A stretch of 24,458 nt of DNA, from IMG/VR virus record IMGVR_UViG_3300044732_001907, positions 1 through 24,458 of that record. The stretch is one strand, 5' to 3'. Below are positions 3,421 to 24,307 of the stretch, one piece after another. Below the pieces are notes generated by a model that was not told where the DNA came from, searched no databases, and saw only the letters and a list, made by a program, of their open reading frames with translations. Source of the DNA: a virus. Made by a program: the position numbers and the translations under genes. Position 1 is the first letter of the stretch. Each line of letters starts with the position of its first letter.

Positions 3421-3624
3421 ATGGCAATTTTAAGAGGGCAGCAACACCCGTCAGCAAAACTGACAGAGGAACAAGTTTTAATCATCAGAGACCTATGGAG
3501 AATGGGTCATCGTAATATTAAAGTTATTGCCCAAAACAATAAGGTATCACCATCAAATGTATTGAAGATAATTCAACGTAAAACTTGGACTCATTTAAAT
3601 CATTTTTGGAGTGGTAGCTTATGA
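3421..3624 (+). CDS. Small helix-turn-helix protein of the homing-endonuclease DNA-binding type
   Basis: The 67-residue product has the pattern AKLTEEQVLIIRDLW, then IKVIAQNNKVSPSNVLKII, then KTWTHL. This is the helix-turn-helix module found at one end of many phage HNH homing endonucleases (AKLTEEDV..IR...iA..f.VS...I..I....W.h), here free-standing without any nuclease domain. It could be a regulator or a leftover of a homing endonuclease. Its stop codon overlaps the start of the first Mom-like gene (ATGA at 3621-3624), so the two are probably translationally coupled, which is reminiscent of phage Mu, where mom overlaps a small upstream gene (com). The product is not recognisably Com: it has no zinc-binding cysteines. 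Confidence 0.65.
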   Translation: MAILRGQQHPSAKLTEEQVLIIRDLWRMGHRNIKVIAQNNKVSPSNVLKIIQRKTWTHLNHFWSGSL

Positions 3625-4394
3625 AAGTAGAAGGTAAACAATATTGTGATATCTCTAAGTTTTCTATTAGAGAGATTAATAAGAACATAGCAAAGGATAT
3701 CATTGTCAATAACCATTATAGTGGGATATGGACGAAGGTATCCTATGCTATTGGATTATTTTATATATCCGATGATGAGCATAATTTTTTTAGTGGTGTA
3801 AACGAACAATTAGTTGGAGTTGCCTGTTATGGTGACCCGGTTGGTAGAAATGCCGGCGCATCAATCTCCGAATTACTTCCTAGAGATGGTGTGTTAGAAT
3901 TGACAAGACTATTCGTATTCGATGGATATGGTAGTAACATTGAGAGTTGGTTCGTTGGACAAACTTTCGAATGGTTGAGAACTAATGTACCTCGTATTAA
4001 AGCACTAATATCATATTCAGACCCAAACGCTGGGCATTTAGGAACGGTATATCAAGCTACCAATTGGATATATCAGGGTAACAAAATCAGATGGTCAGAT
4101 AGTTGGAGTTTCAAATGGAGTGAAGATGATGAATGGCATCATTCTCGGACATCTTATGTGAAGTACGGAACGAATGACCCGAAGATAATTCAGACAATGG
4201 TTACAAGCCCATTCTGGATTAAAAGAGAACCCCGTAAGCATCGATATGTGTATATTCTAACCAAAGATAAAAAGGAGCGTAAAGCCCTCTTAAAATCGCT
4301 TAAACATGAGGTATTCCCCTATCCAAAGGTGGAGTTGGATATTATCGATGAAGTCCATAAAATGGACCCGATAGATTTGGTAGTTTCAGATTAA
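3621..4394 (+). CDS. Mom-like DNA modification protein, copy 1
   Basis: The 257-residue protein matches the Mom family, GNAT-fold enzymes named for phage Mu Mom, which converts adenine in phage DNA to a carbamoylmethyl/acetamido derivative that blocks restriction. Visible conserved parts are HYSG at 32-35, ELTRL at 93-97, the GYGSNIES segment near 102-109, SYSD at 131-134, and GHLGTVYQATNW at 138-149, followed by HHSRTS and a basic KHRYVYIL segment. The start is fixed by the identical MKVEGK opening of copy 2. It overlaps the helix-turn-helix gene by 4 nt. A hand-counted 60-base sample (3841-3900) is 26/60 G+C against 21/60 in the matching part of copy 2, so it looks less AT-rich. The family is clear; the base or product modified is unknown. 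Confidence 0.85.
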   Translation: MKVEGKQYCDISKFSIREINKNIAKDIIVNNHYSGIWTKVSYAIGLFYISDDEHNFFSGVNEQLVGVACYGDPVGRNAGASISELLPRDGVLELTRLFVFDGYGSNIESWFVGQTFEWLRTNVPRIKALISYSDPNAGHLGTVYQATNWIYQGNKIRWSDSWSFKWSEDDEWHHSRTSYVKYGTNDPKIIQTMVTSPFWIKREPRKHRYVYILTKDKKERKALLKSLKHEVFPYPKVELDIIDEVHKMDPIDLVVSD

Positions 4395-4407
4395 TTTCGT
4401 ATATTTG
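4376..4407 (+). promoter_or_regulatory. Conserved phage promoter P1, before the 84-residue gene and mom-like copy 2
   Basis: TTTG (4376-4379), a 20-nt spacer and TATATTTG (4400-4407) match the Bacteroidota -33 and -7 elements. The spacer carries the shared TCAGA and TTTCG blocks. The promoter overlaps the end of mom-like copy 1. If the -7 box spans about -12 to -5, transcription starts near 4412, 3 nt before the ATG at 4415. Confidence 0.75.
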
Positions 4408-4414
4408 TAATGTT

Positions 4415-4669
4415 ATGGCAAAAGTAGAACCAAGCGCTAAGGATAAACCACGTAAATTTGAACACATCTATAAAGATGATGATGGGTGTGAATCAATTTG
4501 GAAATACGATTTGGATAAATTCCCAAATGGACCTATATCAGTAGAAAATAAATATCCTGCTGGGTATGTGAAAGAATTGAAACAAAGACAAAAATTAGCA
4601 AAGGCTGAGAGAAGTTTATCTATTTTAGAAAAAGCAAAACAAGCAAAAAAGAATGAAGGTAGAAGGTAA
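4415..4669 (+). CDS. Small charged protein of unknown function between the Mom-like genes
   Basis: I do not recognise this 84-residue protein. The N-terminal two thirds contain an acidic and aromatic stretch (HIYKDDDGCESIWKYDLD) and a PAGYVKELKQRQ segment; the C-terminal third is a lysine-rich helix likely to be coiled or nucleic-acid binding (EKAKQAKKNEGRR). There is no signal peptide or membrane segment. It is the first gene after promoter P1 and its end overlaps the start of Mom-like copy 2 by 17 nt in another frame, which suggests translational coupling. By position it could be an accessory or control protein for the modification enzyme, but nothing in the sequence shows that. Confidence 0.65.
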   Translation: MAKVEPSAKDKPRKFEHIYKDDDGCESIWKYDLDKFPNGPISVENKYPAGYVKELKQRQKLAKAERSLSILEKAKQAKKNEGRR

Positions 4670-5453
4670 AAATTATTGTGATACATCCAAAGTATATGTA
4701 GCACCAATAGCAAAGAGTATCGCTAAAGATATTATTGTTAAGAAACACTATACTCACGCTTGGACAGCTTGTAGATATGCAATTGGAATATATTACAAAT
4801 CAGAAGATGCTAATACCTTTGATGGTGATAAACTTATAGGTTGTTTAATCTATGGTTTTCCTGTTGGAGCAAAAGCATCGACTTCTATTTGTGAAGGATT
4901 AACCAAAGATAACATTTTAGAATTAACTCGTTTGTATTGTGATGATGGTTATGGTTCTAATATTGAATCATTTGCATTAGGACAATCTTTCAAATGGTTA
5001 AAAGAGCACGATAAAAATATTAAAGTATTACTTTCATACGCCGATAACGGACAAGCTCACTTAGGAGGAATATATCAGGCTACCAATTGGATTTATCAGG
5101 GGTTATCTACGGATATTGCATTGATGCCAAATTGGGGTATATCATTACACAAAGACCCGTATCAATGGATTCATAGTAGAACTGTATTCTCAATGTGGGG
5201 TAGTGGTAATTTAGCACACTTACAAATGGAAATCGGTAAGCAAGGATATAAAGAGTTTTGGAGAAGGGAAGAACCACCAAAGCATAGATATGTTCAAATA
5301 CTTGCGCAAGATAAAAAAGAAAAGAAAGATTTGATGAAACGATTGAAGCATGAGATTAGACCTTATCCAAAAGATACGGCTAGTTACAATACGGAAGTAG
5401 TTCATCACTTAACAACATATGAAGTACCTGAAGGAACTGAAAACTTTTGGTAA
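4653..5453 (+). CDS. Mom-like DNA modification protein, copy 2
   Basis: The 266-residue protein is a diverged paralogue of the product at 3621-4394. Both open with MKVEGK and share IAKDIIV..HY, LELTRL, DGYGSNIES, LSYAD or ISYSD, YQATNWIYQG, HSRT and KHRY..IL..DKKE. Family residues are visible as H32, R93 in ELTRL (90-94), D131 in SYAD (128-131), and the H136-LGGIYQATNW segment. The loops differ, for example around residues 52-60 and after residue 150 where copy 2 has an insertion, so the two may differ in sequence target or partner. The start at 4653 lies inside the upstream gene but is supported by the matching N-terminus. P2 begins in its last codons. Confidence 0.85.
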   Translation: MKVEGKNYCDTSKVYVAPIAKSIAKDIIVKKHYTHAWTACRYAIGIYYKSEDANTFDGDKLIGCLIYGFPVGAKASTSICEGLTKDNILELTRLYCDDGYGSNIESFALGQSFKWLKEHDKNIKVLLSYADNGQAHLGGIYQATNWIYQGLSTDIALMPNWGISLHKDPYQWIHSRTVFSMWGSGNLAHLQMEIGKQGYKEFWRREEPPKHRYVQILAQDKKEKKDLMKRLKHEIRPYPKDTASYNTEVVHHLTTYEVPEGTENFW

Positions 5454-5477
5454 TATCAGGAATATTTCGTATATTTG
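5446..5477 (+). promoter_or_regulatory. Conserved phage promoter P2, before the polymerase operon
   Basis: TTTG (5446-5449), a 20-nt spacer and TATATTTG (5470-5477). The spacer has TCAGG and ATTTCG at the same places as in P1, P3 and P4. The -33 box lies in the last codons of mom-like copy 2. The predicted start near 5482 gives a leader of about 60 nt. Confidence 0.8.
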
Positions 5478-5493
5478 TATAAATAAAAGGTTT

Positions 5494-5521
5494 TGTGAGG
5501 TCCCTATTAAATACTCTCACA
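5494..5521 (+). promoter_or_regulatory. Inverted repeat in the leader of the polymerase operon
   Basis: TGTGAG (5494-5499) and CTCACA (5516-5521) are reverse complements with a 16-nt loop, one G-T pair could extend the stem. It lies within the predicted 5' leader between P2 and the ATG at 5545, so it could be an operator or an mRNA hairpin. A 6-bp stem with a long loop is weak evidence. Confidence 0.3.
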
Positions 5522-5544
5522 CCCAAACTTAAAAACTAAATTTT

Positions 5545-7296
5545 ATGACAAATTCAGAAAAAAAAGAAAGACTTACACGTCTTATTCAAATGACAGCCCC
5601 ATCTTGGCTAACAAAAGAAAAGTATGAAAATTTTCTTAGAGAAAGAGAAACTTTAAAGAAAGCGTTTTCAATTGAAACTCATTTAGGCCCAATTCTTGCG
5701 GCAAACCAACTCAATTGGAGAGATGCTAAGTTAAATCCTGCTTGGCAATCTTGGGAAGTTGCATTATCTCCTAAATTTTTAGTAGATAAATATCTAGCAG
5801 ATGAAGTAATATCAGACCCATCATCCGGACAAGACCCAAAGACATTTTCAAAAGAAAATGAAAAAACAGCTAGTGTTCATGCTGGCAGACATTGGGGGTA
5901 TAAAAAGATTTTTACACAGCCCGGTGTAAATTTTATAGAAACGCCATCCGAATGGTTACAATCTGGAACTTTTAATTTAATTATAATAGATGGTAGACTT
6001 GTAGTAGTTCCCATTAATGTTGAGCATAGAAATTGGGGATTGATTGGATTTCCATTGAACTTAGTTCCTTTGGATTCTAATAAAAAACTTTGGTACTACA
6101 ATCCAAAATTGCCAGAATTATATGATGATGAACTTGGAAAAATGGTAAATGGTATTAGAGTTGATGGACTTTATTTATCGGATATAGTTAGTAAGTGTAG
6201 AGAGCTTGGAGCTGATATAACAGCCGATGATATAAAAAATAGATTTTATCAAAATAAATTTACATTTCAATTTTTACCTTTCTTTTCTCAAAAAGAAACT
6301 GAAATATTTTTTAAAGAAATTAATAGTTCAAGTGCAAAAACAGAACCACAATTATTTCATGCAGAACCACACCCAGTACAATATTGGATAAAGAAATTTT
6401 CATCCCCAAAGGTAGTTGAATTTAAACCATCGAATCAACAATACCATCCTTTATTTGAAAATATGAGTATGACCTCTAAAGTAAAGTTAGAGGCTATGAT
6501 GATTTCACATGAAATATTACAATGGAATCTAAATGATAGAAAATTCGTACCACACTCAGATAAAGCATTGATTAATTTATTTAGTACAAATAGTAATAAA
6601 GTTGATGAAGATATTAAACAACAAACCATAGATGATATGGATTGGTTATATAGTATATTATCAAAATCAGACCCTATGTTACAACCAACTAGACCTTTGG
6701 TTCAACACTTTTTAAAAATAAAAGATTATTTGGAAGATGATGGTAAAATTATAGCAGACCCATATACATTCATAAATGAATGGAATGATTGGTTTGCGGC
6801 AGCTTCATCAGAAAATGGAAACTTAACAAAATTTGCATTAGCTTGGCGTAAATCTACTGCAGAGGCTTATAAAGAAGCTTGGAAAATTATTAAAGATGGA
6901 TTTCTTAAAAAACTAAATATAGGCATTGTTGATAAATCACCATCTGTTCCAAGAATTTTTGATAGAGATGTAATTCAAGATTCTTTGAAATTAAATAAAG
7001 GACTTGATGTTGATGCTAGTTTTCTTGAAAGTAGAGCAGTGGGTGGGCATATAATTTCTGATTTTGAATTAATTAGAATGACTAAAGAGGAAAGAGATAT
7101 TGCTTTTCAGAATGAAAAATTAGGAGATGTTTTTGATTTTAATAAAAATTGTAGAGCAATGAGTTCTTATCACAACCAAAGAATGGGTGTTTTGAGATTG
7201 AGTGAGTATCTTTCACTTATGCACGATGAAAATTCAGTAAGAACAGCTAGGATTCGAAAATATAAAGAATTGAAAGATAAACAAATATTAGTATAA
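5545..7296 (+). CDS. Large protein of unknown function, possibly ParB/DUF262-like with an HNH-like C-terminus
   Basis: I do not firmly recognise this 583-residue protein. Near residues 145-172 a hydrophobic strand IIIDG is followed by INVEHRNWGLIGFPLN, recalling the DGQHR/DUF262 signature (DGqHRl..l..F), with E160-H161-R162 in place of QHR. Residues 250-275 (ETEIFFKEINSSSAKT, then QLFHAE) fit the 'iN..s...T..e' element of the same group. The C-terminus has GGHII (500-504) and SSYHNQRMG (540-548), which could be a degenerate HNH site, though no CxxC zinc pair is present. DUF262 proteins include restriction enzymes against modified DNA, so a defence or counter-defence role beside the Mom-like genes is conceivable but inferred. 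First gene after P2; its TAA overlaps the next ATG by one base. Confidence 0.4.
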   Translation: MTNSEKKERLTRLIQMTAPSWLTKEKYENFLRERETLKKAFSIETHLGPILAANQLNWRDAKLNPAWQSWEVALSPKFLVDKYLADEVISDPSSGQDPKTFSKENEKTASVHAGRHWGYKKIFTQPGVNFIETPSEWLQSGTFNLIIIDGRLVVVPINVEHRNWGLIGFPLNLVPLDSNKKLWYYNPKLPELYDDELGKMVNGIRVDGLYLSDIVSKCRELGADITADDIKNRFYQNKFTFQFLPFFSQKETEIFFKEINSSSAKTEPQLFHAEPHPVQYWIKKFSSPKVVEFKPSNQQYHPLFENMSMTSKVKLEAMMISHEILQWNLNDRKFVPHSDKALINLFSTNSNKVDEDIKQQTIDDMDWLYSILSKSDPMLQPTRPLVQHFLKIKDYLEDDGKIIADPYTFINEWNDWFAAASSENGNLTKFALAWRKSTAEAYKEAWKIIKDGFLKKLNIGIVDKSPSVPRIFDRDVIQDSLKLNKGLDVDASFLESRAVGGHIISDFELIRMTKEERDIAFQNEKLGDVFDFNKNCRAMSSYHNQRMGVLRLSEYLSLMHDENSVRTARIRKYKELKDKQILV

Positions 7297-8411
7297 TGGA
7301 TTTTTGGGAAGGACAATTAAGTAAAGAAGCAAGGCGTGTTTTGGTGATACCTAATATCACCAATTCCGCTAATATAGAAAAGGATTCATTTGTTGATGTT
7401 ATATACAATCATATAAAAGGTTTAGAGCAGTACGGAGAATACTTTTGGAATATTATATTACCAGAGCCGGTTAAGAAATTAAATTTACTAAATGTAAAGC
7501 AACATATCCTAACTTTCTCTGGCGATATGATTAAAATGCGTACCTATCCGCCTGACTTTAATAGGTTATTGGAAACATTAGAGTATGATGTTATCTATTC
7601 ACATTTGCCTGATTGGCCTCAAGTTGGAAGATATAAGAATTCATTTGATACTAAAATAATTGGTTACTGTCATTGGTGGGAAATGAAATCCTGCAATGCG
7701 GAGGATAGAAAGAATAAATGGAGATGGATGCCAATTGAATTATTGGGTATATCTCAAATGGAAACTTGCTATCTTAATACACAAGACCAAAAGAATAGAG
7801 TATTAGAAGAAGCTAAGATTTGGTTCAATGATGAGTTTGTTAAAAAGCTAGATGATATTTTGGTGGTATGGAATTTAGGATTACCAAAACAAAATGTAAT
7901 TGAATCAGCATCGGAAGAAAAACAAAATATTATAGTATTCAATCATAGAGCAGCAGCTTACAAAGGTTATCCTGCTTTTATTAAATTGATGGAAGAATAT
8001 AGAGAACGTAGACAAGATTTTAGTGTATGGGTGCCTCAATTAAAAGGAACGCCGGAACATAATTGGATTGATGCTACTAAACTTCCAAAGCATGAGTATT
8101 ATGGTAGATTACAACAATGTAAAGTTGGTATTCAGATGAGGCAAACGAATTATGGTTGGAGTGTATCTGCAACTGATTGTTTGATGAATGGTACGCCAAT
8201 GATATATCAAGAATCATTATGTTATCAGGAAATAGAACCAAACGGATTGTTTTTTAAATTTAAAAAAGACCTGTTTGAAATGCTGGATAAAATATTCGAT
8301 GACGATAATTATAGAAAGGATAGGGAGATTAAAAGTATAGCAAGAGCATTAGAACTTTCAGAAAATGAAGGTAAGATGTTACAACAATTAAACATAAAAT
8401 TAAAAGCATAG
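7296..8411 (+). CDS. GT-B fold glycosyltransferase encoded directly before DNA polymerase
   Basis: The 371-residue product has the two-domain layout of GT-B glycosyltransferases. The C-terminal half starts with a strand and loop (IIVFNHRAAAYKGYPAFIKL, 212-231) typical of the nucleotide-sugar domain, and residues 286-303 (YGWSVSATDCLMNGTPMI) take the place of the EGFGL..aEAmA.G.P signature of GT4 enzymes, with the first Glu replaced. The N-terminal domain holds YDVIYSHLPDW and CHWWEMKSC segments. It overlaps the upstream stop by one base and is followed immediately by the polymerase start, so it is co-expressed with replication, unlike the other glycosyltransferases in this window. DNA or nucleotide glycosylation is a reasonable inference by position; a glycan target cannot be excluded. 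Confidence 0.65.
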   Translation: MDFWEGQLSKEARRVLVIPNITNSANIEKDSFVDVIYNHIKGLEQYGEYFWNIILPEPVKKLNLLNVKQHILTFSGDMIKMRTYPPDFNRLLETLEYDVIYSHLPDWPQVGRYKNSFDTKIIGYCHWWEMKSCNAEDRKNKWRWMPIELLGISQMETCYLNTQDQKNRVLEEAKIWFNDEFVKKLDDILVVWNLGLPKQNVIESASEEKQNIIVFNHRAAAYKGYPAFIKLMEEYRERRQDFSVWVPQLKGTPEHNWIDATKLPKHEYYGRLQQCKVGIQMRQTNYGWSVSATDCLMNGTPMIYQESLCYQEIEPNGLFFKFKKDLFEMLDKIFDDDNYRKDREIKSIARALELSENEGKMLQQLNIKLKA

Positions 8412-10934
8412 ATGTATCAAAATATTTATTATCAGAGAGAAAGAAATTTAGTACACATTTGGGATGATAAGTTAGGATATAGAACCTTTCCGTATGTTAG
8501 GTATGCTTACGAAAAAGCACAAAGAGGACAATACACATCTTTGTACGGAGATAAGTTAGATAAGATTTTTAAATTTACAAAAGATGACCCGAATTTATTT
8601 GAATCGGATGTAGCTGAAACCACTAGAGTTTTGGTTGATACATATACTGATTCGGATATTCCATCAGAAGGGCACGTTACACTTACTTATGATATTGAGT
8701 GTGAAATGGATAGTGGTTTGCCTGATGTTGAAAAATCAGAAAATGAATTAACCGCTATTGGTTTGCACGATTCTGCTACTGACCATTATTGGGTTTTAAT
8801 TATGGACAAAGCTGGTAAGATGAGTGAAAAGAAGACCGGTAATAGAACTGTAATTCCTTTCAAAGATGAGAGGGATATGTGTATGAAGTATTTAGAGTTA
8901 TACGAATATATTAATCCAACCATCGTAACGGGTTGGAACATTGATAACTTCGATACTCCTTATTTGTATAATCGTATTAAAAGACTATTAGGTGTTAAGC
9001 ACGCTAATAGGTTAAGCCCAATAGGTGAATGTTTTTGGTCTCCATATCGTAAGAGATTCTATATGGCCGGCGTATCTTATTTAGATTACCTAGCTTTATA
9101 TAAAAACTTCACCTATTCGGAATTAGATAACTATCGTTTAGATAGTATTGCGATGAAAGAATTGGGTAGAGGTAAGATTGAGTACTCTGGTAACTTAGAT
9201 GATTTATTCAAAGATGATATTGAAAAGTTTATTGAGTATAACTTAGTCGATGTTCAATTGGTGGTTGATATGGATGCTAAATTACAATTCATTGATACGG
9301 CTAGAGGTATCTGTCACGCTGGACACGTACCTTATGAAGATTTTGTTTATTCATCAAAGTACTTAGAGGGTGCATTGTTATGTTACCTTAAAAGAAGAAA
9401 CATTGTAGCTCCTAACAAACCTGCGGATAGACAAGAAAGGATGCAAGCACTTAGAGATAATGACCAAGAGAAATTCATTGGTGCATATGTGAAGGCACCC
9501 ATCGTTGGTAAGTACGAATGGATATATGATTTGGATTTAACTTCACTATATCCTTCAATCATTATGACAACTAACATTTCACCAGAAACAAAAGTTGGTA
9601 AGATTGATAATTGGGATGCACAAAAATTTATGAAGGGTGAGATTGATACATTTTTCTTAGGTGAAAAAAGTATTACAAAAGAAAACCTTAAAAAGTTATT
9701 AGATGAAAGCAAATACGCTATATCATCTAATGGAGTTCTTTACACTACTGATAAAGTAGGTTGTATCCCTGATATCTTAGACCTATGGTTTAAACAAAGG
9801 GTTGAGTTTAGAGCATTGGAAAAAAAGTATGGTGAGAGTGGTGACAAAGAGAAGTACGCATTCTATAAGAAAAGACAATTGGTACAAAAAATCTTATTGA
9901 ACTCTTTATATGGTGTGTTAGGTTTGCCGGCTTTCCGTTTTTATGATGTGGATAACGCTGAGGCTGTAACAACAACCGGACAGACTGTAATTAAATCTAC
10001 GGCTGATATGGCTAACATTAAATACAATAAAGAGTTAGGAACAAGCGGACAAGACTTTAACATATACATTGATACGGATTCGGTATTCTTTTCAGCAGTA
10101 CCTATCTTAGACCATCGTTATAAAGATTGGAGAACTTTGCCTGATGCAGAAATTGCCTTGAAGGTGGATGCTATTGCTGGTGAAACTCAAGACTTTTTAA
10201 ATAAGTTTTATGATGTATTGGCTGAGAAAGTATTCAATGTAGATAAAACAAAACATAGATTCCAAATCAAAAAAGAATTTGTAAGTAGAAGTGGTATTTG
10301 GATTGCTAAGAAACGATACGCTCAATGGATTATTGCGGAGAATGGTATTCCTTGTGATACGTTGCAAGTTAAAGGATTGGATGTGGTTCGTTCATCGTAT
10401 CCAGCACAATTCCGTAAGTTTATGAGTGGTATATTGATTTCAATTCTACAAGGTGAAACTGAAATGGTATTAACTGATAGGATATATGATTTCAAAAAGG
10501 ACTTGGTTAATATGGATGTAACTTCAATTGCTAAGAACTCAGCAGTAAAAGAATTATCAAAATACATTCCAAAGAAAAAAGATAATAGAGCAATGTTCCA
10601 ATTCAATAGTGGAACTCCGGCGCATGTAAAAGCAGCAATCGCTCACAATCAACTATTAGTTCATTTTAAATGTGCAGCTAAGCACGCTCCAATGAGAGAT
10701 GGTGATAAAATTAAGTGGGTATATTTGAAACAAAACCCATATGGATTGGATGCGGTTGGATTCAAAGGACATGATGACCCTGATGAAATAATGGACTTGG
10801 TGAGGATGTATATCGATTATGATAAAATCTTCGAAAGGGAATTATTGAAGAAATTAGAGGACTTTTATGGGGCTTTAGGGTGGGGTGCAGTACTTTCCTC
10901 ACAAAAAACCGCTGAACAATTCTTTTCTTTCTAA
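8412..10934 (+). CDS. Family B DNA polymerase, T4 gp43-like replicative enzyme
   Basis: The 840-residue protein carries both activities of a replicative family B polymerase. The 3'-5' exonuclease motifs are YDIECE (D94, E96), GWNIDNFD (173-181) and YNLVD (D280). The polymerase motifs are A, DLTSLYPS with D375; B, KILLNSLYG (493-501); and C, YIDTDS with D554 and D556, followed further on by KKRYAQW. Length is near T4 gp43 (898). No intein or intron interrupts it. It starts on the base after the preceding stop and ends the P2 operon. The sliding clamp and clamp loader genes follow in the next operon, which supports a T4-type replisome. Confidence 0.97.
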   Translation: MYQNIYYQRERNLVHIWDDKLGYRTFPYVRYAYEKAQRGQYTSLYGDKLDKIFKFTKDDPNLFESDVAETTRVLVDTYTDSDIPSEGHVTLTYDIECEMDSGLPDVEKSENELTAIGLHDSATDHYWVLIMDKAGKMSEKKTGNRTVIPFKDERDMCMKYLELYEYINPTIVTGWNIDNFDTPYLYNRIKRLLGVKHANRLSPIGECFWSPYRKRFYMAGVSYLDYLALYKNFTYSELDNYRLDSIAMKELGRGKIEYSGNLDDLFKDDIEKFIEYNLVDVQLVVDMDAKLQFIDTARGICHAGHVPYEDFVYSSKYLEGALLCYLKRRNIVAPNKPADRQERMQALRDNDQEKFIGAYVKAPIVGKYEWIYDLDLTSLYPSIIMTTNISPETKVGKIDNWDAQKFMKGEIDTFFLGEKSITKENLKKLLDESKYAISSNGVLYTTDKVGCIPDILDLWFKQRVEFRALEKKYGESGDKEKYAFYKKRQLVQKILLNSLYGVLGLPAFRFYDVDNAEAVTTTGQTVIKSTADMANIKYNKELGTSGQDFNIYIDTDSVFFSAVPILDHRYKDWRTLPDAEIALKVDAIAGETQDFLNKFYDVLAEKVFNVDKTKHRFQIKKEFVSRSGIWIAKKRYAQWIIAENGIPCDTLQVKGLDVVRSSYPAQFRKFMSGILISILQGETEMVLTDRIYDFKKDLVNMDVTSIAKNSAVKELSKYIPKKKDNRAMFQFNSGTPAHVKAAIAHNQLLVHFKCAAKHAPMRDGDKIKWVYLKQNPYGLDAVGFKGHDDPDEIMDLVRMYIDYDKIFERELLKKLEDFYGALGWGAVLSSQKTAEQFFSF

Positions 10935-10938
10935 AAGA

Positions 10939-10970
10939 TTTGGTGGTTTCAGGTATTTTTCGTATATTTG
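10939..10970 (+). promoter_or_regulatory. Conserved phage promoter P3, before the clamp operon
   Basis: TTTG (10939-10942), a 20-nt spacer and TATATTTG (10963-10970). The spacer contains TCAGG and TTTTTCG in the same register as P2 and P4. It lies wholly in the gap after the polymerase. Predicted start near 10975, leaving a leader of about 35 nt to the ATG at 11010. Confidence 0.85.
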
Positions 10971-11009
10971 TGTATTATAAACTTTAAATAAATTAAAATT
11001 AGATTCGTT

Positions 11010-11705
11010 ATGAACAAAAGCAAATTCGATGGTTTCGTAAATCGTTACAACTTAGGTGGTGAGATTGAATCCGTTATGGTAAAATCCGATGATACAAATT
11101 TATCGGTAAGAATGATTTCAGATGACAAAACCTTATTAGGTGATGTTACAGTAGTAGGCGGTGAATTTCCAAATGGTGAGTTTGGTATTTACACTACATC
11201 TCAATTGAAAGGATTATTGAGTGTATTAGATGAATCAATCGCAGTAGAAGAAGTTACTGGAGCATTGAAATTCTCTGATAAGAAAACAAAGGTACAATAT
11301 ATGTTAGCAGCACCATCGGTGATTCCTGCAGTACCTGATTTAAAAGCATTACCTCCATTTGATACGGAAGTAAGTTTAGATGATGACTTTGTAAATAAGT
11401 TCATTAAATCAAAAGGTGTATTATCTGATTCAGATACATTCACATTTATGGTTAAAGGTGGTAAGGCTGAAATTATCTTAGGATATTCTTCAATCAACTC
11501 AAACCGAATTTCAATTGCAGTAGAAGCAACTGCTAAAGAAGATATCGAACCAATCGCTTTCTCAGCAAAATATTTGAAAGCTATCTTAATGGCTAACAAA
11601 GGTTCTAAATCATCTTCATTAAAAATCTCATCTAAGGGATTATCGCATGTAGCATTCGTAGATGGTGATTACACTTCAAACTATTACTTAGTAGAAATTA
11701 AATAA
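11010..11705 (+). CDS. Sliding clamp, T4 gp45-like
   Basis: The 231-residue product is close in length to T4 gp45 (228), the trimeric ring that tethers the polymerase to DNA. It has no enzymatic motifs; the call rests on overall pattern: alternating strands, the IYTTSQLKGLLSVLD segment near 60-74, a second-domain SDTFTFMVKGGKAEI segment, and the terminal HVAFVDGDYTSNYYLVEI, which matches the closing strands of clamp proteins of this group. Context is strong: it lies between the polymerase and two clamp-loader subunits. In T4 the clamp also activates late transcription, which may matter here since more than one promoter class appears in the window. Confidence 0.8.
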   Translation: MNKSKFDGFVNRYNLGGEIESVMVKSDDTNLSVRMISDDKTLLGDVTVVGGEFPNGEFGIYTTSQLKGLLSVLDESIAVEEVTGALKFSDKKTKVQYMLAAPSVIPAVPDLKALPPFDTEVSLDDDFVNKFIKSKGVLSDSDTFTFMVKGGKAEIILGYSSINSNRISIAVEATAKEDIEPIAFSAKYLKAILMANKGSKSSSLKISSKGLSHVAFVDGDYTSNYYLVEIK

Positions 11706-11710
11706 TTATT

Positions 11711-12922
11711 ATGAGCTTTTGGGATACTGAACCACAAAAACCTGTCTTTGACTTTGAATCTGAAAAATCAAAGTTAATAGAAAATATGGATTACCTTATG
11801 ACAATGTCTGTACAAGAACAAACTTTGTATAAGAAGTGGGTAGAATTGCAAGAACCTACAATGATTCAAGCAAAAGCCCAAATAGCATCATACTATGATT
11901 CTCAATGGAAACCAACTGATATCAACAATAAGGAGCTAACGATAAAAGAAATTGAATCGTTAGACCCTTACGTTGAGATTGTGGAAGACCCGAAAGAATC
12001 TACTAAGTGGGCAGCGGTAAGACGTATGATTCACACAATGGATTTTACAGCAAACCCTGGCCGTAATGTGAAGATTAATGTAAAGGATAGAGTAAGTGGA
12101 AAACTATTAGGACAGATTTCATTAGCATCCGATGTAACCGCTATGGGAGTTAGAGATAACTTTATTGGTTGGACTAAGGATAATAAGTTTGTTGATGGTA
12201 AGTTAAACAATACTACTATTGCCTCTACTATTGTATGTACTCAGCCATTAGGATACAATTTCTTAGGTGGTAAGTTAATCGCTATGATGACAACTACGCC
12301 GGAGGTTAGAGCATATTGGAAAGAGAAGTATAAGAACGTATTGATTGCAGTGGGTACAACATCTTTGTATGGTATTCATTCACAATATAATGGTATCCCT
12401 TTATTTAAAACATTAGGTGAATCAGCTGGTAAGATTAGTTTAAAGCCGGATGATAAATTCTATGACCCGTGGCATCAATGGATTAAAGAAAACCATGCGG
12501 AGTGGTATTCTGAAAACATTACCGAAGAAAGAGCTCGTAATGGCGCTAATATGGGTTACGAAAGAAACGGACCTGTTAGTGGTATCAAACAAAAGATATT
12601 AGGTAAGATATTCAAAGAGTGTGGTATTAAGGCAACTGAATATCATCACGGATTTAAAAGAGGTGTGTACTTCGCTATGATGTATGAGAATGGAAATGAA
12701 TTCCTTCGTAACGAAATCACCGAAGATAAACTAATCATCAAAGATAAGTTTAAGCAAGGTACTGAATACATCAACAAATGGTGGAAGAAACACGCAATAA
12801 GTAGATATACAAAACTACATGATGAAGGAAGAATTAAACCAGAACACTTATTCTACATAGATGCTATTGGAATTAGTTGGGAAGAAATGAAAGAAAAATA
12901 CCTATCAGAAGTAGGAAGATAA
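11711..12922 (+). CDS. DruA-like (DUF4338) family protein in the replisome operon
   Basis: The 403-residue protein resembles the DUF4338/DruA family. The central part runs G-ISLASDV..., RDNFIGW, then LNNTTIASTIVCTQPLGYNFLGGKLIAM, W..KY, a strand with GTTSLYG, and FKTLGESAGK. This follows the order of the DruA signature (iGWd...l..nsRFLilP...n.aShvL...W...Y...P.l.eTF......G..Y.aanw..lG.T.Grg). DruA is named after the Druantia defence system; its catalytic role is unsettled, and phage-encoded homologues are known only as uncharacterised proteins. The last third (residues about 270-400) is basic and aromatic and may bind DNA. It lies 5 nt after the clamp gene. Family call moderate, function unknown. 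Confidence 0.5.
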   Translation: MSFWDTEPQKPVFDFESEKSKLIENMDYLMTMSVQEQTLYKKWVELQEPTMIQAKAQIASYYDSQWKPTDINNKELTIKEIESLDPYVEIVEDPKESTKWAAVRRMIHTMDFTANPGRNVKINVKDRVSGKLLGQISLASDVTAMGVRDNFIGWTKDNKFVDGKLNNTTIASTIVCTQPLGYNFLGGKLIAMMTTTPEVRAYWKEKYKNVLIAVGTTSLYGIHSQYNGIPLFKTLGESAGKISLKPDDKFYDPWHQWIKENHAEWYSENITEERARNGANMGYERNGPVSGIKQKILGKIFKECGIKATEYHHGFKRGVYFAMMYENGNEFLRNEITEDKLIIKDKFKQGTEYINKWWKKHAISRYTKLHDEGRIKPEHLFYIDAIGISWEEMKEKYLSEVGR

Positions 12923-12939
12923 TATAAAAAACAAAAATT

Positions 12940-13359
12940 ATGGCAAAGGATAAAAAAACAAAAATTGAAAAGGTAGAAACCGCAACAAAAGAAATAGTAC
13001 CTGAATTAGGACTAGCATCAATAAATTTAGAAAAATACGATGATTGTGAGTGGTGTTTTCAATTTGATGAAGATGAACCACAAATATTTGCTTGGATGGA
13101 TGATGAGTTAAATAAAGAAGAAGACCCAAAAGTAATGTTTAGTATTACCAATGTAAAGGATTCTTATATTAACTTTACACATCAAAATGGAAAAGTATTT
13201 AAATTATTTGCTAGAGAAATTTCAGAGCAAGGTAAGGAATTAAGAGAAAAGCAAAGAGTTATGATAGCTCAAATGAAAGAAGATGAAAGAGCTTATCAAG
13301 AAAGATTACAAGAAATTCAAAAAGAAAACGAAAATGCAAGTGAAAATAAAAAGGATTAA
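12940..13359 (+). CDS. Acidic protein of unknown function
   Basis: I do not recognise this 139-residue protein. It begins with a lysine-rich segment, has an acidic aromatic middle (WCFQFDEDEPQIFAWMDDEL), a probable beta region (VMFSITNVKDSYINFTHQNGKVFKLF), and ends in a long charged helix that is likely a coiled coil (from about residue 95 to the end). No membrane segment or enzyme motif is visible. It sits between the DruA-like gene and dUTPase in the clamp operon, and its last 26 bases overlap the start of the dUTPase gene in another frame. Confidence 0.65.
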   Translation: MAKDKKTKIEKVETATKEIVPELGLASINLEKYDDCEWCFQFDEDEPQIFAWMDDELNKEEDPKVMFSITNVKDSYINFTHQNGKVFKLFAREISEQGKELREKQRVMIAQMKEDERAYQERLQEIQKENENASENKKD

Positions 13360-13768
13360 TCCTAATGCGGTAATTCCAACATACGCTAAAGAAGGTGATG
13401 CTGGTATGGATTTAGTAGCAACATCAATTATATCAGAAACAACTACTGATGTAACCTATGGTACGGGATTGGCTATGGAAATTAGAGATGGGTTTGTGGG
13501 ATTGGTATTCCCTCGTTCATCAATAAGAAAATACGATTTGGCATTAACAAATTCTGTAGGTGTAATTGATAGTGGGTATAGAGGAGAAATTCAAGCCACA
13601 TTCAAAAAAACTAATTGGTTAAAAGGCAATGAATCTGAAAAATATCAAATAGGTGATAGAATTGCACAAATTATGATTATACCGCATCCACAAATTGAGT
13701 TTGATGAAGTGGACGAGTTATCGGATACTCAAAGAGGTGATGGTGGATTTGGTTCAACTGGAAAATAA
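13334..13768 (+). CDS. dut: dUTP diphosphatase (trimeric dUTPase)
   Basis: The enzyme hydrolyses dUTP to dUMP and pyrophosphate, which keeps uracil out of DNA and feeds thymidylate synthesis. All five motifs of the homotrimeric family are present in 144 residues: GDAGMDL (21-27), PRSS (60-63), GVIDSGYRGEI (76-86), GDRIAQIMI (107-115) and RGDGGFGSTG (134-143). The ATG at 13334 is preferred over one at 13283, because the family N-terminus begins just before KIKRINP; the longer form would add 17 lysine-rich residues. It overlaps both neighbours or abuts them, so it belongs to the clamp operon. Confidence 0.95.
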   Translation: MQVKIKRINPNAVIPTYAKEGDAGMDLVATSIISETTTDVTYGTGLAMEIRDGFVGLVFPRSSIRKYDLALTNSVGVIDSGYRGEIQATFKKTNWLKGNESEKYQIGDRIAQIMIIPHPQIEFDEVDELSDTQRGDGGFGSTGK

Positions 13769-13778
13769 AAAATACAAT

Positions 13779-14720
13779 ATGTTTATAGAACAAACGGAAG
13801 AAAAGGTAAATAATAATTTATGGGTAGAGAAATATCGCCCATCAAAGCTTGTTGATTATGTAGGTAACGAACATCTAAAATCAAAAGTAGAAGGTTATTT
13901 AGAAACAGGTGAAATTCCACATTTACTTTTGTACGGAAAAGCCGGCACTGGTAAAACTACATTAGCAAAGTTAATCGTAAAATCAATTGAATGTGATTAT
14001 ATGATTATCAACGCATCTTCGGAGAATAATGTGGATACCGTAAGAAATAAAGTAACTAACTTTGCATCTTCAATGGGATTCAAACCATTTAAGATTATTA
14101 TATTGGATGAGTTTGATTATATGACTCACAACGCACAAGCTATATTAAGAAACTTAATGGAAACATTTTCAGCACATTGCCGTTTCATATTAACTTGTAA
14201 CTATGTTGAGAAAGTAATTGACCCAATTCAAAGTAGATGTCAATCATTTCAAATTGTACCTCCAACTAAAAAAGACGTTGCTATGCAAATTAGTAAAATC
14301 TTAAAAAATGAAGAAATTGAATTTGAAGTTAAGGATTTAGTTCCAATTATTGATGCAGCTTATCCTGATATTCGTAAGGTTATTAATACTTGCCAATTGA
14401 ATTCAATCAAAGGTAAGTTGAAAGTGGATGTACAAAATCTATTAGAGAATGATTATAGAAATAAAATTATTGACATCCTATCTTCAAAAGATGATAAGAG
14501 AAATAAGTATATGAAAGTAAGACAGGCTCTTATTGATTCCAAAGTTACGGACTTTACTGATTTATATACAATGTTATATGATAAGGTAGATGAGTATGGT
14601 GGAGAGAATACGGCAAACATCATTCTTTTATTAGGAGATGGTGTAAGTAAATCAGCAGTAGCAATTGATAAAGAAATTATAGCAGCAGCTACATTAATTC
14701 AAATTTTAAATATTATATAA
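13779..14720 (+). CDS. Clamp loader large subunit, T4 gp44/RFC-like AAA+ ATPase
   Basis: The 314-residue product is an AAA+ ATPase that opens and loads the sliding clamp at primer ends. It has the RFC opening motif WVEKYRP (15-21), Walker A GKAGTGKT (53-60), Walker B IIILDE (106-111), sensor 1 LTCN, and the SRC motif (152-154) that supplies the arginine finger to the neighbouring subunit. Its length matches T4 gp44 (319). The ATG at 13779 places the family start correctly; an upstream ATG at 13695 would lie inside dUTPase and add 28 unrelated residues. Its stop overlaps the next start by one base. Confidence 0.93.
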   Translation: MFIEQTEEKVNNNLWVEKYRPSKLVDYVGNEHLKSKVEGYLETGEIPHLLLYGKAGTGKTTLAKLIVKSIECDYMIINASSENNVDTVRNKVTNFASSMGFKPFKIIILDEFDYMTHNAQAILRNLMETFSAHCRFILTCNYVEKVIDPIQSRCQSFQIVPPTKKDVAMQISKILKNEEIEFEVKDLVPIIDAAYPDIRKVINTCQLNSIKGKLKVDVQNLLENDYRNKIIDILSSKDDKRNKYMKVRQALIDSKVTDFTDLYTMLYDKVDEYGGENTANIILLLGDGVSKSAVAIDKEIIAAATLIQILNII

Positions 14721-14986
14721 TGGCAAACATTTTAGGAGCAGGTGGGCAACCAATCGGAGGACAAGAAGAAAAAGCAGTTTCATTAGAAAAAACCGAAGCA
14801 ATCGGATGTAAGAAATGTGGTGGTGAGATTTTCGTACAAGGTTTTGGATTCCGTAGAATTTCAAAGTTATTAACTGGTAAACCAAAAGATGAAGTACTGC
14901 CGGTTGAACTATTCCTTTGTGGAGATTGTGGTGAAGTACTTAATGAATTATTACCTCCGGGTTTAAAAGTAGAAGAAGAAGCATAA
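14720..14986 (+). CDS. Small zinc-ribbon protein between the clamp loader genes
   Basis: The 88-residue protein has C30-x2-C33 (CKKCGG) and C67-x2-C70 (CGDCGE), spaced as in a zinc ribbon, after a glycine-rich start and before an acidic tail. I do not recognise the family. It overlaps the clamp-loader stop by one base and ends one base before the next start, so it is made together with the two loader subunits. Zinc ribbons of this size serve in nucleic-acid binding or in transcription complexes; whether it joins the replisome or clamp-dependent transcription cannot be told from sequence. Confidence 0.7.
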   Translation: MANILGAGGQPIGGQEEKAVSLEKTEAIGCKKCGGEIFVQGFGFRRISKLLTGKPKDEVLPVELFLCGDCGEVLNELLPPGLKVEEEA

Positions 14987-14987
14987 T

Positions 14988-15437
14988 ATGGCTAAAACAT
15001 TATTCGACCATCTAAACGCAATTACGGATAAGAAAGACCCAAAGTATTGGGACACGCTTGATGAAAGTGATAAAAAGACATGGAGTAACTATATGATACT
15101 CCGTTTTCTTTCTATGAAACCTGAGTGGATAGAACTAATTGCAGATATACAACCTTACATACAGGAGGCACCTCCCAAAGCGATGTATTTATGTTTGATA
15201 GGATTGATTCCAAAGACGAGAGCATTCTTAAAATATATGAAACCCGCTTCATCTGAAAAGTATGAAGATTGGATTATTGAATTGGTAGCAAGACAATATG
15301 AAGTATCTTTAACTGAAGCAGAGGATTATCTTAAAATACTTTACGAAACCACCAGCGGTAAGATGCATATTAAGGAAATCGCTGAGAACTATGGTACTGA
15401 CCCTAAACAAATTACTAAATTAAAACTCAAAGTTTAA
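14988..15437 (+). CDS. Clamp loader small subunit, T4 gp62-like
   Basis: The 149-residue protein starts with LFDHLNAIT and contains SNYMILRFLSMKPEWIELI followed by a proline break and a short hydrophobic LIGLIPKTRAFLKYMK. This is the pattern of the gp62 family in T4-like phages (F.vnr.LS..pe......, then liPk....kymk), although it is shorter than T4 gp62 (187). gp62 is the non-ATPase partner of gp44 in the 4:1 loader. The C-terminal part (IAENYGTDPKQITKLKLKV) could form a small helical DNA-binding unit. Position after gp44-like and zinc-ribbon genes supports the call. It is the last gene of the P3 operon; P4 starts on the base after its stop. Confidence 0.7.
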   Translation: MAKTLFDHLNAITDKKDPKYWDTLDESDKKTWSNYMILRFLSMKPEWIELIADIQPYIQEAPPKAMYLCLIGLIPKTRAFLKYMKPASSEKYEDWIIELVARQYEVSLTEAEDYLKILYETTSGKMHIKEIAENYGTDPKQITKLKLKV

Positions 15438-15469
15438 TTTGGTAATCTCGGGTATTTTTCGTATCTTTA
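15438..15469 (+). promoter_or_regulatory. Conserved phage promoter P4, before the nuclease gene
   Basis: TTTG (15438-15441), a 20-nt spacer and TATCTTTA (15462-15469), with one deviation from TAnnTTTG at the last base. The spacer has TCGGG and TTTTTCG in the same register as the others. It begins at the first base after the upstream stop; the ATG follows at 15487, so the predicted leader is about 13 nt. Confidence 0.75.
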
Positions 15470-15486
15470 TAGAATAAAATAACATA

Positions 15487-16359
15487 ATGGCTAAAGTATC
15501 ATTTTCTCAATATAGTATGTGGAGTTCATGCCCACATCAATACAAATTAAATTACATAGATAAGTTAGGTGAAAGTTCATCTAACGTTCATACAATTTTT
15601 GGAACTGCAATGCACGAAACTATCCAACATTACCTATCGGTTATGTATGGTGTTTCTAAGAAGCAAGCAGATGAAATTAACAAAGATAAACTCTTATTGG
15701 AAAGAATGAGAGAAGCTTATAAATCTGAAGCTGAAAAGATGAGTGAGGGAACTCCTTGTACTCAAATCGAATTAGAAGAATTTTATGGTGATGGCAGACG
15801 TATTCTACAATGGTTAGATAAGCATATGCATAAATTCTATTCAAAGAGTGGATTTGAATTGGTAGGTATTGAAATTCCATTAAACGCAACTATTAAAGAA
15901 GGTGTACACTTTATTGGATTTATCGATATTGTGATGAGAGATTTGGCATCTAATGAAATTATTATCATTGACCTTAAGACATCTACTATGGGATGGAATC
16001 AGTATCAAAAAGCTGATAAGATGAAGAACTCTCAAATCCTATTATACAAAAAGTATTATTCGGAGTTATTTAATATTCCATTACAAAAGATTAAAGTGGA
16101 GTATCAGATACTTCGTAGGAAATTACCCGAAGATTCGGCATTTCCAGTACCACATGTATCTAAGCATATTCCAGCACATGGTTCTCCATCTGTTAAAAAA
16201 GTATATGATGAATTTATGGAATTTATCAATACTGTATTTGAAGATGGTGGTGCGTTTAAAAATATAGAATTTCCAAAAGTGCCAGGCGCAGCAAAAAAGA
16301 ATTGTAAGTTTTGTGAATTTGGCAATAGGGGAATATGTGATAAAAAGGCTACAAAATAA
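15487..16359 (+). CDS. Cas4/RecB-like PD-(D/E)XK nuclease with probable 4Fe-4S cluster
   Basis: The 290-residue protein opens with the family-typical FSQYSMWSSCPHQYKLNYI (C15), then GTAMHETIQ (H43), a core of GFIDIV (D147) and IIIIDLKTST (D162, K164), and a QILLY segment (Q183, Y187). Near the C-terminus C273, C276 and C284 (CKFCEFGNRGIC) combine with C15 to form the four-cysteine set that holds an iron-sulfur cluster in Cas4 and AddB nucleases. All catalytic residues are present. Such phage enzymes act in recombination or DNA end processing; no Cas gene or CRISPR array lies nearby. It is expressed alone from P4, with the ribbon-helix-helix gene following. Confidence 0.88.
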   Translation: MAKVSFSQYSMWSSCPHQYKLNYIDKLGESSSNVHTIFGTAMHETIQHYLSVMYGVSKKQADEINKDKLLLERMREAYKSEAEKMSEGTPCTQIELEEFYGDGRRILQWLDKHMHKFYSKSGFELVGIEIPLNATIKEGVHFIGFIDIVMRDLASNEIIIIDLKTSTMGWNQYQKADKMKNSQILLYKKYYSELFNIPLQKIKVEYQILRRKLPEDSAFPVPHVSKHIPAHGSPSVKKVYDEFMEFINTVFEDGGAFKNIEFPKVPGAAKKNCKFCEFGNRGICDKKATK

Positions 16360-16383: not shown

Positions 16384-16407
16384 TATATTTATATATACAA
16401 ATATATT
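16384..16407 (+). promoter_or_regulatory. 24-bp AT-rich dyad element, copy 1, before the ribbon-helix-helix gene
   Basis: A 24-bp sequence here is identical to 23606-23629. It has arms TATATTT (16384-16390) and AAATATA (16399-16405) around 8 nt, so it is an imperfect palindrome. It ends 4 nt before the ATG at 16412. Possible operator for the protein encoded next, or a second promoter class containing TATATTTA. Confidence 0.5.
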
Positions 16408-16411
16408 TATA

Positions 16412-16612
16412 ATGAATCAAGACAACACAAAACTAACAACTGTGAAAATACTGAAAGATGTATATTCATCATTCAAAAAGGTTTCTTTCGATTCTGACGT
16501 AACACTTCAAAAGCTGGTAAATAGAACAGTGGAAAGATATGTTAAGGATGATGAGTTTAGAAAAGAAATGAATGAATATTTACAACTTCAAATTTCAGGT
16601 TCACAATTTTAA
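16412..16612 (+). CDS. Ribbon-helix-helix (Arc/CopG-like) DNA-binding protein
   Basis: The 66-residue protein has the proportions of a ribbon-helix-helix regulator: a short strand TTVKILKD (9-16), a helix YSSFKKVSFDS, a turn, then a helix TLQKLVNRTVERYVKD (31-46), and a short C-terminal helix. Proteins of this type bind palindromic or tandem operators as dimers and often repress their own gene. The identical 24-bp dyad just upstream and before the gene at 23678 would be natural targets. The ATG at 16412 is chosen because an earlier in-frame start at 16313 would lie inside the nuclease gene and run through the AT-rich element. Fold call is by pattern only. Confidence 0.65.
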   Translation: MNQDNTKLTTVKILKDVYSSFKKVSFDSDVTLQKLVNRTVERYVKDDEFRKEMNEYLQLQISGSQF

Positions 16613-23605: not shown

Positions 23606-23629
23606 TATATTTATATATACAAATATATT
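23606..23629 (+). promoter_or_regulatory. 24-bp AT-rich dyad element, copy 2, between protease and GT2 genes
   Basis: Identical over 24 bp to 16384-16407, with arms TATATTT (23606-23612) and AAATATA (23621-23627). It starts 19 nt after the protease stop and lies just upstream of promoter P5, whose -33 box begins at 23642. That position suits an operator or an upstream second promoter. Confidence 0.5.
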
Positions 23630-23641
23630 ATCAGAGATAGA

Positions 23642-23673
23642 TTTGGTAATGTAGAAAAAAAGTGTTATATTTG
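23642..23673 (+). promoter_or_regulatory. Promoter P5 with -33/-7 geometry but a different spacer
   Basis: TTTG (23642-23645), a 20-nt spacer and TATATTTG (23666-23673). The spacer begins GTAAT like P2 and P4 but then has an A-run in place of the TCRGG and TTTCG blocks. If the -7 box is at -12 to -5, transcription starts at 23678, which is the A of the ATG. Confidence 0.65.
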
Positions 23674-23677
23674 TATT

Positions 23678-24307
23678 ATGATAAATGTTACATACGCTAT
23701 TACGGTTTGCAACGAGCTTACCGAAATTACTCAACTTATTAATTTCTTACATCCAAGACTAAAATCAGAAGATGAGATATTAATACAATACGATACGGAT
23801 TCCGCAACTACTCAAGTTAAGGATTACCTTACTATCTTAACTCAAATGCATGAAAACATTAGAGTTATCTCATTCCCTTTAAACAAAGATTTTGCATCTT
23901 ACAAAAACAATTTAAAAAATCATGCCAATGGTATGTTTATTTTTCAAATTGATGCAGATGAAATGCCATCGGAATATTTGGTTGAAAATTTGGAGTTCTT
24001 TTTAGAATCTAATAAAGAAGTAGACCTTTTCTTTATACCTCGCATTAATACTGTTGAAGGATTAACTGATGAACACATTAAAAAGTGGGGATGGAAAGTT
24101 AATGAATTGGGATGGATAAACTTTCCTGATTATCAAACACGTCTTTACAGAAGAACATCGGAAATTGAATGGCAAGGTAAGGTACATGAAAGAATAATTG
24201 GATATAATACATTATCCGTATTACCGCAAGATGAAGAATATTGTTTGTATCATCATAAGCAAATAGCAAGACAAGAAAAGCAAAACGAATTGTATGATAC
24301 CATCTAA
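23678..24307 (+). CDS. GT2-family glycosyltransferase (GT-A fold)
   Basis: The 209-residue product opens with VTYAITVCNELTEI, the usual first strand and loop of GT2 enzymes, and has a D-x-D metal and nucleotide-sugar site in IDADEMPSEY (D92, D94). WQGKVHE (165-171) is a conserved late motif of small single-domain GT2 proteins of the lipopolysaccharide-core biosynthesis type. The ATG at 23678 is chosen because the family start coincides with it and P5 ends 4 nt before; a TTG at 23603 would add 25 residues encoded by the promoter and dyad DNA. It overlaps the next gene by 14 nt. Acceptor unknown. Confidence 0.88.
   Translation: MINVTYAITVCNELTEITQLINFLHPRLKSEDEILIQYDTDSATTQVKDYLTILTQMHENIRVISFPLNKDFASYKNNLKNHANGMFIFQIDADEMPSEYLVENLEFFLESNKEVDLFFIPRINTVEGLTDEHIKKWGWKVNELGWINFPDYQTRLYRRTSEIEWQGKVHERIIGYNTLSVLPQDEEYCLYHHKQIARQEKQNELYDTI

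What the first reader, a model, noticed from the sequence alone, without database searches (positions are those of the whole stretch)
4376..15469. Promoter family with a conserved spacer as well as conserved -33 and -7 boxes
At 4376, 5446, 10939 and 15438 a TTTGG is followed at identical distance by TC(A/G)G(G/A), then TTTCG directly against TAT(A/C)TTT(G/A)T. All four have exactly 20 nt between TTTG and the -7 box and all lie at operon starts. The host -33/-7 consensus of Bacteroidota leaves the spacer free, so the fixed spacer blocks suggest an added contact, such as a phage activator, an extended -7 (TTTCG), or a phage sigma factor. It defines a probable replication-gene regulon.
Basis: partly seen in the sequence, partly recalled or inferred. 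Interest (0 to 1): 0.75.

Follow-up and report, generated by a model that had tools for sequence, protein, structure and literature searches.

The report
Phage promoters using host's extended signal
Four start signals for gene reading in a phage share not only the two known recognition boxes but also fixed letters between them; similar extra letters occur in chromosomal start signals of some Bacteroidales bacteria, so the phage most likely copies a host signal rather than using a factor of its own.

Summary
At 4376, 5446, 10939 and 15438 TTTG-N20-TATNTTTR recurs with 11 of 20 spacer columns identical (0 of 200,000 random quadruples exceed 6). A fifth promoter, 23642, has the spacing without the blocks. 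In 12 phage records (window plus 11 relatives) the spacing is rigid (N20 107, N19 18, N21 3), and 84 non-redundant sites share T-26 C-25 and TTTCG beside the -7 box. These blocks are not phage-specific: 95 Bacteroidales sites, chosen by -33/-7 boxes with seed matches removed, favour the same letters, and a spacer-only matrix from them ranks the four sites 1-4 of 48,852 positions (1, 2, 4 and 5 without the strongest genome). Three sigma-factor families gave 0 of 10 phage records. Best reading: strong extended promoters of the host housekeeping polymerase (sigma-ABfr) for a broad early/middle gene set, not only replication genes. New variant of a known kind. Caveats: those host genomes were found through the motif; the strict pattern is rare in other sampled genomes; the phage's host is unknown.

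The parts
4376..4407 (+). Extended promoter 1: -33 TTTGG 4376-4380, TC of the -25 element 4386-4387, TTTCG 4395-4399, -7 TATATTTG 4400-4407; predicted start of transcription about 4412
   Evidence: start placed from F. johnsoniae data, 4-5 nt after the -7 box
5446..5477 (+). Extended promoter 2: TTTGG 5446-5450, TC 5456-5457, TTTCG 5465-5469, TATATTTG 5470-5477; predicted start about 5482
   Evidence: no ortholog of the 5545 gene was found in the 80 clamp loci (E 1e-8, aligned from its first six residues), so this copy is not explained by ortholog inheritance within them
10939..10970 (+). Extended promoter 3 (sliding clamp operon): TTTGG 10939-10943, TC 10949-10950, TTTCG 10958-10962, TATATTTG 10963-10970; predicted start about 10975
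15438..15469 (+). Extended promoter 4 (PD-(D/E)XK nuclease): TTTGG 15438-15442, TC 15448-15449, TTTCG 15457-15461, TATCTTTA 15462-15469; predicted start about 15474
   Evidence: the unusual -7 TATCTTTA is kept in 41 of the 43 orthologous promoters listed
23642..23673 (+). Fifth promoter, same 20-nt spacing (TTTG 23642-23645, TATATTTG 23666-23673) without TC or TTTCG; predicted start coincides with the ATG at 23678 (leaderless)
   Evidence: ranks only 210 with the host spacer matrix
4415..4669 (+). 84-aa gene without a Pfam match behind promoter 1, followed by a Mom-family gene (4653-5453)
5545..10934 (+). Operon (inferred) behind promoter 2: 583-aa protein without a Pfam match, glycosyltransferase-like protein (below Pfam cut-off), family B DNA polymerase
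11010..15437 (+). Operon (inferred) behind promoter 3: sliding clamp, DruA-like protein, unknown protein, dUTPase, clamp-loader ATPase, zinc-ribbon and gp62-like proteins (the last two below Pfam cut-off)
   Evidence: the clamp has no Pfam match and is named from its place between polymerase and clamp loader
15487..16359 (+). PD-(D/E)XK nuclease behind promoter 4
16384..16411 (+). Two copies (16384-16393, 16402-16411) of a second, late-like promoter box TATATTTATA before the ATG at 16412; the second copy touches the ATG and is unlikely to drive it
23606..23615 (+). Another TATATTTATA box

Best explanation
These are strong, near-consensus promoters for the housekeeping RNA polymerase (sigma-ABfr type) of a Bacteroidota host. 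Besides -33 TTTGG and -7 TATATTTGT they carry a rigid 20-nt spacer holding a T-26 C-25 (A/G)-24 element and a T-rich TTTCG extension at -17 to -13, elements that some Bacteroidales chromosomal promoters also use. Shown: the sites, the spacing, the spacer conservation in phages and its counterpart in those hosts. Inferred: that host polymerase reads them unaided, early in infection, for an early/middle gene set, and that the -25 and -13 positions are read by the holoenzyme (about one helical turn apart). In four of the six promoter-like sites with a 19-nt spacer (picked by eye) TC keeps its distance to the -7 box, not to -33, so it behaves as part of the -7 side unit.
For: Rigid spacing in phages (TTTG-N20-TANNTTTG 107 forward/6 reverse, N19 18, N21 3), in Prevotella sp. 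MA2016 (N20 31, N19 14, N21 1) and in a termite-gut Bacteroidales MAG (N20 46, N19 14, N21 5). Same columns biased in 95 host sites. Host spacer-only matrix ranks the four sites 1-4 of 48,852 positions and scores 79 other phage sites at 8.2 against -7.1 (sd 0.55) for letter-shuffled spacers; without the MAG (50 sites) the ranks are 1, 5, 2, 4, with MA2016 alone (29 sites) 1, 49, 3, 34. The 44 stretches returned for the full pattern from 84,980 species genomes all bear Bacteroidota titles, several from the same genome. crAss001, whose recorded host is Bacteroides intestinalis, has 10 forward N20 sites in 50 kb, 8 with T-26 and 3 with TC (counted by eye). In phages TC stands at -26/-25 in 37 of 73 N20 sites against 15 of 250 at control spacings. 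PF04542, phrog_234 and phrog_12791: 0 of 10 phage records each. 124 of 166 sites lie within 120 nt of a following start codon, 13.6% expected.
Against: The host genomes examined closely were reached because they hold the motif. A Seonamhaeicola genome (251 kb) and a 20-genome phylum sample (349 kb, two pieces all N) show no N20 excess; a strict pattern was in 0 of 60 other sampled genomes, a looser one in 1 of 40. In hosts the TC signal is uneven: 22 of 45 in the MAG, 6 of 29 in MA2016, 5 of 22 in the other loci; together 33 of 96 against 25 of 134 at other spacings, a modest difference (Fisher p 0.009). With equal selection, phage sites differ from these hosts at -32 (G 89% against 52%), -9 (A 66% against C 75%) and -4 (T 92% against C 78%), so these lineages are not the host or the phage has preferences of its own. 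The phage's real host is unknown. crAss001 sites lack CG before the -7 box (0 of 10). The phage records may be incomplete, so a factor could lie outside them or be too diverged. No transcript data.
Confidence: 0.75

Rival explanations
1. A phage-encoded activator (MotA-like in role) binds the TC(A/G)GG block and recruits host polymerase, defining a middle-gene regulon.
For: The block is shared by non-orthologous promoters in one genome and kept in relatives; it is more frequent in phage than in host sites, and -32 G, -9 A and -4 T are phage preferences even with equal selection.
Against: The same block stands in Bacteroidales sequence and in 3 of 10 crAss001 sites; where the spacer is 19 nt it moves with the -7 box (4 of 6 by eye); in 16 of 76 clamp promoters TC is TG with the spacing intact.
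Confidence: 0.12
2. A phage sigma factor with its own -33/-25/-7 specificity reads them.
For: High density and uniformity of the motif in these phages.
Against: PF04542, phrog_234 and phrog_12791 gave 0 of 10 records, which may be incomplete; the motif contains the complete host -33/-7 boxes.
Confidence: 0.04
3. The spacer conservation is only recent common descent of one promoter cassette copied in front of several genes.
For: Within close relatives the spacers are nearly identical; near-identical promoter copies follow one another in Mel-JY01.
Against: 84 sites reduced at 60% identity over 102 nt still show the columns while flanks are nearly flat; spacers differ at the free positions.
Confidence: 0.09

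Closest known systems
sigma-ABfr housekeeping promoter of Bacteroidota (-33 TTTG, -7 TAnnTTTG)
   Same: Both boxes at their places; start-site distance taken from F. johnsoniae (passages of PMC6847099); B. thetaiotaomicron agrees on the boxes (passages of PMC7366714).
   Different: [quoted passage not shown] thetaiotaomicron) or AT-rich motifs at -18 and -28 with a weak -33 (F. johnsoniae); here the spacer is rigid at 20 nt with T-26 C-25 and TTTCG. Figures were not seen.
T4 early promoters (recalled, from no call)
   Same: Phage promoters read by unmodified host polymerase with a consensus longer than the host's -35/-10.
   Different: Different host sigma; here the extra positions also occur in host sequence.
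T4 middle promoters with MotA box (recalled, from no call)
   Same: A block at fixed distance from the -7/-10 box, replication genes downstream.
   Different: The -33 box is intact and the block exists in hosts; no MotA search was made.
crAss001 promoters (Bacteroides intestinalis phage)
   Same: TTG-N20-TANNTTTG, 10 forward sites in 50 kb against 0-3 at the ten other spacings tested; T-26 in 8, TC in 3.
   Different: A different phage group by its record; the CG of the TTTCG extension is absent from all 10.

Membership tests
sigma-ABfr type promoter | -7 TAnnTTTG | tested here: met
   3 of the 4 listed sites and the fifth exactly; 15438 has TATCTTTA
sigma-ABfr type promoter | TTTG near -33 | tested here: met
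   all 5 sites, 20 nt before the -7 box
sigma-ABfr type promoter | spacer as in host promoters | tested here: met
   host spacer-only matrix ranks the four sites 1-4, the fifth 210; met only against lineages found through the motif
sigma-ABfr type promoter | transcript 5' end 4-5 nt after the -7 box | not testable with these tools
   no RNA data; a hint: in 10 of 84 representative phage sites an ATG falls exactly on the predicted start
Promoter read by a phage sigma factor | phage encodes a sigma factor | tested here: inconclusive
   0 of 10 records for PF04542, phrog_234 and phrog_12791, but records may be incomplete and other families were not searched
Activator-dependent (MotA-like) middle promoter | activator box replaces the -35/-33 element | tested here: not met
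   -33 TTTGG intact in all four
Activator-dependent (MotA-like) middle promoter | phage encodes the activator | not tested
   no MotA or AsiA family search was made

The most novel reading that the evidence does not exclude
The T-26 C-25 (A/G) element is an undescribed recognition element of the Bacteroidota housekeeping RNA polymerase holoenzyme, in register with the -7 box, used by part of the Bacteroidales chromosomal promoters and enriched by lytic phages; together with TTTCG and a rigid 20-nt spacer it makes an extended promoter class for this phylum.
Probability: 0.42. Interest if true: 0.6.

Novelty: new variant of a known kind. Interest (0 to 1): 0.45.

Why it matters
Promoter rules in Bacteroidota rest on short -33/-7 boxes. 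A spacer element with fixed register, visible in phages and in some hosts, would sharpen promoter prediction, suggest stronger expression parts for Bacteroidales, and point to a polymerase contact that can be tested by mutation and structure. It also lets promoter type help assign hosts to uncultured phages.

Tried and rejected
Phage sigma or late factor: PF04542, phrog_234 and phrog_12791 gave 0 of 10 records each, 10 of the 19 phage records that then had handles. The exact block TC(A/G)G(G/A) as defining: too narrow, distant relatives keep TC or TG only. A tight pattern scan of viral contigs returned 1 locus, in a record that had no match to the looser pattern (G018). Host generality: no N20 excess in Seonamhaeicola or the 20-genome sample. 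Whether the sampled genomes are Bacteroidota was checked with SusD on 29 handles: 20 of 29 had it, 12 of 15 drawn as order of G020 but only 5 of 11 drawn as phylum of G021, so the phylum sample is a weak negative. Promoters of the 23678 gene: 4 orthologs, 2 with an N20 promoter lacking TC, 2 with none. Host TC frequency against other spacings was only modestly raised.

Literature: nine searches were answered; no title or abstract start in the listings pointed to a -25 element or to promoter maps of such phages. Passages of PMC6847099 and PMC7366714 were read, nothing else. The library lacks most subscription journals, so this says little about print as a whole. BfP1E6, a Bacteroides phage promoter known to me by recall, occurred in one of the 10 listed papers and was not compared.
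Full report
Observation. The window is a whole IMG/VR record of 24,458 bases carrying a ribonucleotide reductase small chain, two Mom-family proteins, a family B polymerase, dUTPase and T4-like clamp-loader genes. The four sites are exactly as described. Eleven of 20 spacer columns are identical; 200,000 random quadruples never exceed 6. A fifth site at 23642 has the same spacing but not the blocks.

Relatives. A clamp search found 162 relatives, of which the best 80 were kept. Of 78 clamp orthologs with an aligned start, 2 had too little upstream; the other 76 all have a promoter of 19- or 20-nt spacing, with TC at -26/-25 in 59, TG in 16, TA in 1. For the 4415 gene there were 18 orthologs: 1 too short, 5 without the promoter, 12 with it, all 12 with TC. 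For the nuclease 54 orthologs: 11 without the full pattern (the four shown keep TC and TTTCG but have TTAGG for TTTGG), 43 with it, 35 with TC. The 5545 gene gave no ortholog. The 23678 gene gave 4: two with an N20 promoter lacking TC, two with none. In 18 whole records TTGG-N19-TATNTTTRT gave 130 matches (my addition) against 2 for the reversed pattern, in 17 of 18 records; some records are near copies of each other.

Architecture. In 12 records (window included, 1.03 Mb) spacing is rigid at 20. After reduction at 60% identity 84 sites show, besides the boxes, T-26 (85%), C-25 (56%, G 23%), A-24 (68%, G 25%), T-16 and T-15, C-14 (62%) and G-13 (74%) (column 25 taken as -12). One of the three patterns that chose these sites required TTGG and one TTTGT, so -32 and -4 are partly imposed; with the plain pattern TTTG-N20-TANNTTTG (53 sites) the figures are T-26 92%, C-25 60%, C-14 64%, G-13 89%. 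TC stands at -26/-25 in 37 of 73 N20 sites and in 15 of 250 control sites of other spacings. Of 26 N19 sites six look like promoters by eye, and in four of them TC keeps its distance to the -7 box. 124 of 166 sites lie within 120 nt of a start codon, 13.6% expected.

Host comparison. A scan of 84,980 species genomes for the full pattern returned 44 stretches, all with Bacteroidota titles, mostly Prevotella or other Bacteroidales. From 43 of these loci (the one Flavobacteriaceae left out, seed matches removed), 400 kb of Prevotella sp. MA2016 and 400 kb of a termite-gut Bacteroidales MAG, 95 non-redundant TTTG-N20-TANNTTTG sites show T-26 62%, C-25 45%, G-13 63%. A matrix of their spacer columns alone, with spacer composition as background, ranks the four window sites 1, 3, 2, 4 of 48,852 positions and the fifth 210; across 79 phage sites outside the window's families the mean is 8.2 against -7.1 for shuffled spacers, and the upstream half alone also separates (4.5 against -3.9). 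Without the MAG (50 sites) the ranks are 1, 5, 2, 4; with MA2016 alone (29 sites) 1, 49, 3, 34. So the conserved spacer is not peculiar to the phage.

Limits of that comparison. These genomes were found through the motif. The TC part is strong in the MAG (22 of 45) and weak in MA2016 (6 of 29) and the other loci (5 of 22); pooled, 33 of 96 against 25 of 134 at other spacings (p 0.009), where the comparison sites may include real -7 boxes. Less selected samples show little: no N20 excess in a 20-genome sample and in Seonamhaeicola, itself reached by one match, 0 of 60 genomes for a strict pattern besides the seed genome, 1 of 40 for a looser one with 0 of 41 for a displaced control. The extended form is lineage-dependent or sparse in hosts and dense in these phages, whose host is unknown.

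Other phages. crAss001 has 10 forward N20 sites in 50 kb against 0-3 at the other spacings, 8 with T-26 and 3 with TC, none with CG before the -7 box. The cyanophage S-CAM9 has 1. Mel-JY01, listed as infecting Microcystis elabens and the nearest record by polymerase among annotated phages (52%), has 20 forward and 4 reverse in 150 kb.

Mechanism. Host holoenzyme recognition is the simplest account. Three sigma families gave no match in 10 records; activators were not searched. In one relative (G008, 17 sites) the first genes behind the sites include the clamp; of ten others scanned with Pfam, DnaB-like helicase, HAD, FkbM methyltransferase and UvdE were recognised, one weakly as DUF1599, five not at all. 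This suggests an early/middle set wider than replication. Timing is inferred.

A second class. Of 330 upstream stretches without this promoter, 78 hold TATTTATA; TATATTTATA occurs 82 times on the coding strand and 2 on the other, with no -33 or spacer signal. It resembles a late promoter and would be a better candidate for a phage-specific factor.

Noticed in passing
16384, 16402, 23606; weaker near 262 and 19786: Second promoter-like class TATATTTATA without a -33 box, 82 forward against 2 reverse in 12 records; in 24 of 48 representatives the next called start is 13-30 nt downstream. Reminiscent of T4 late promoters (recalled), yet no gp55-family match in 10 records.
   Followed up: partly
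23678; 84 representative sites in 12 phage records: Predicted leaders look bimodal: 17 of 84 have the first fitting ATG at -1 to +2 of the predicted start (10 exactly on it), none at 3-8, 48 at 9 or more, 19 none found. Against this, the window's own 4415 gene lies at +3. Suggests some leaderless phage mRNAs.
   Followed up: partly
L185, L269, L270 (PP395634.1): Microcystis phage Mel-JY01 carries Bacteroidota-type TTG-N20-TANNTTTG promoters (20 forward in 150 kb), unlike 50 kb of cyanophage S-CAM9 (1); its recorded host may be doubtful.
   Followed up: partly
3621-4394 and 4653-5453: Two neighbouring Mom-family (PF25680) paralogs, suggesting DNA base modification.
   Followed up: no
11711-12922: A DruA-like protein (PF14236) inside the clamp/clamp-loader operon, an odd place for a family named after a defence system.
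   Followed up: no
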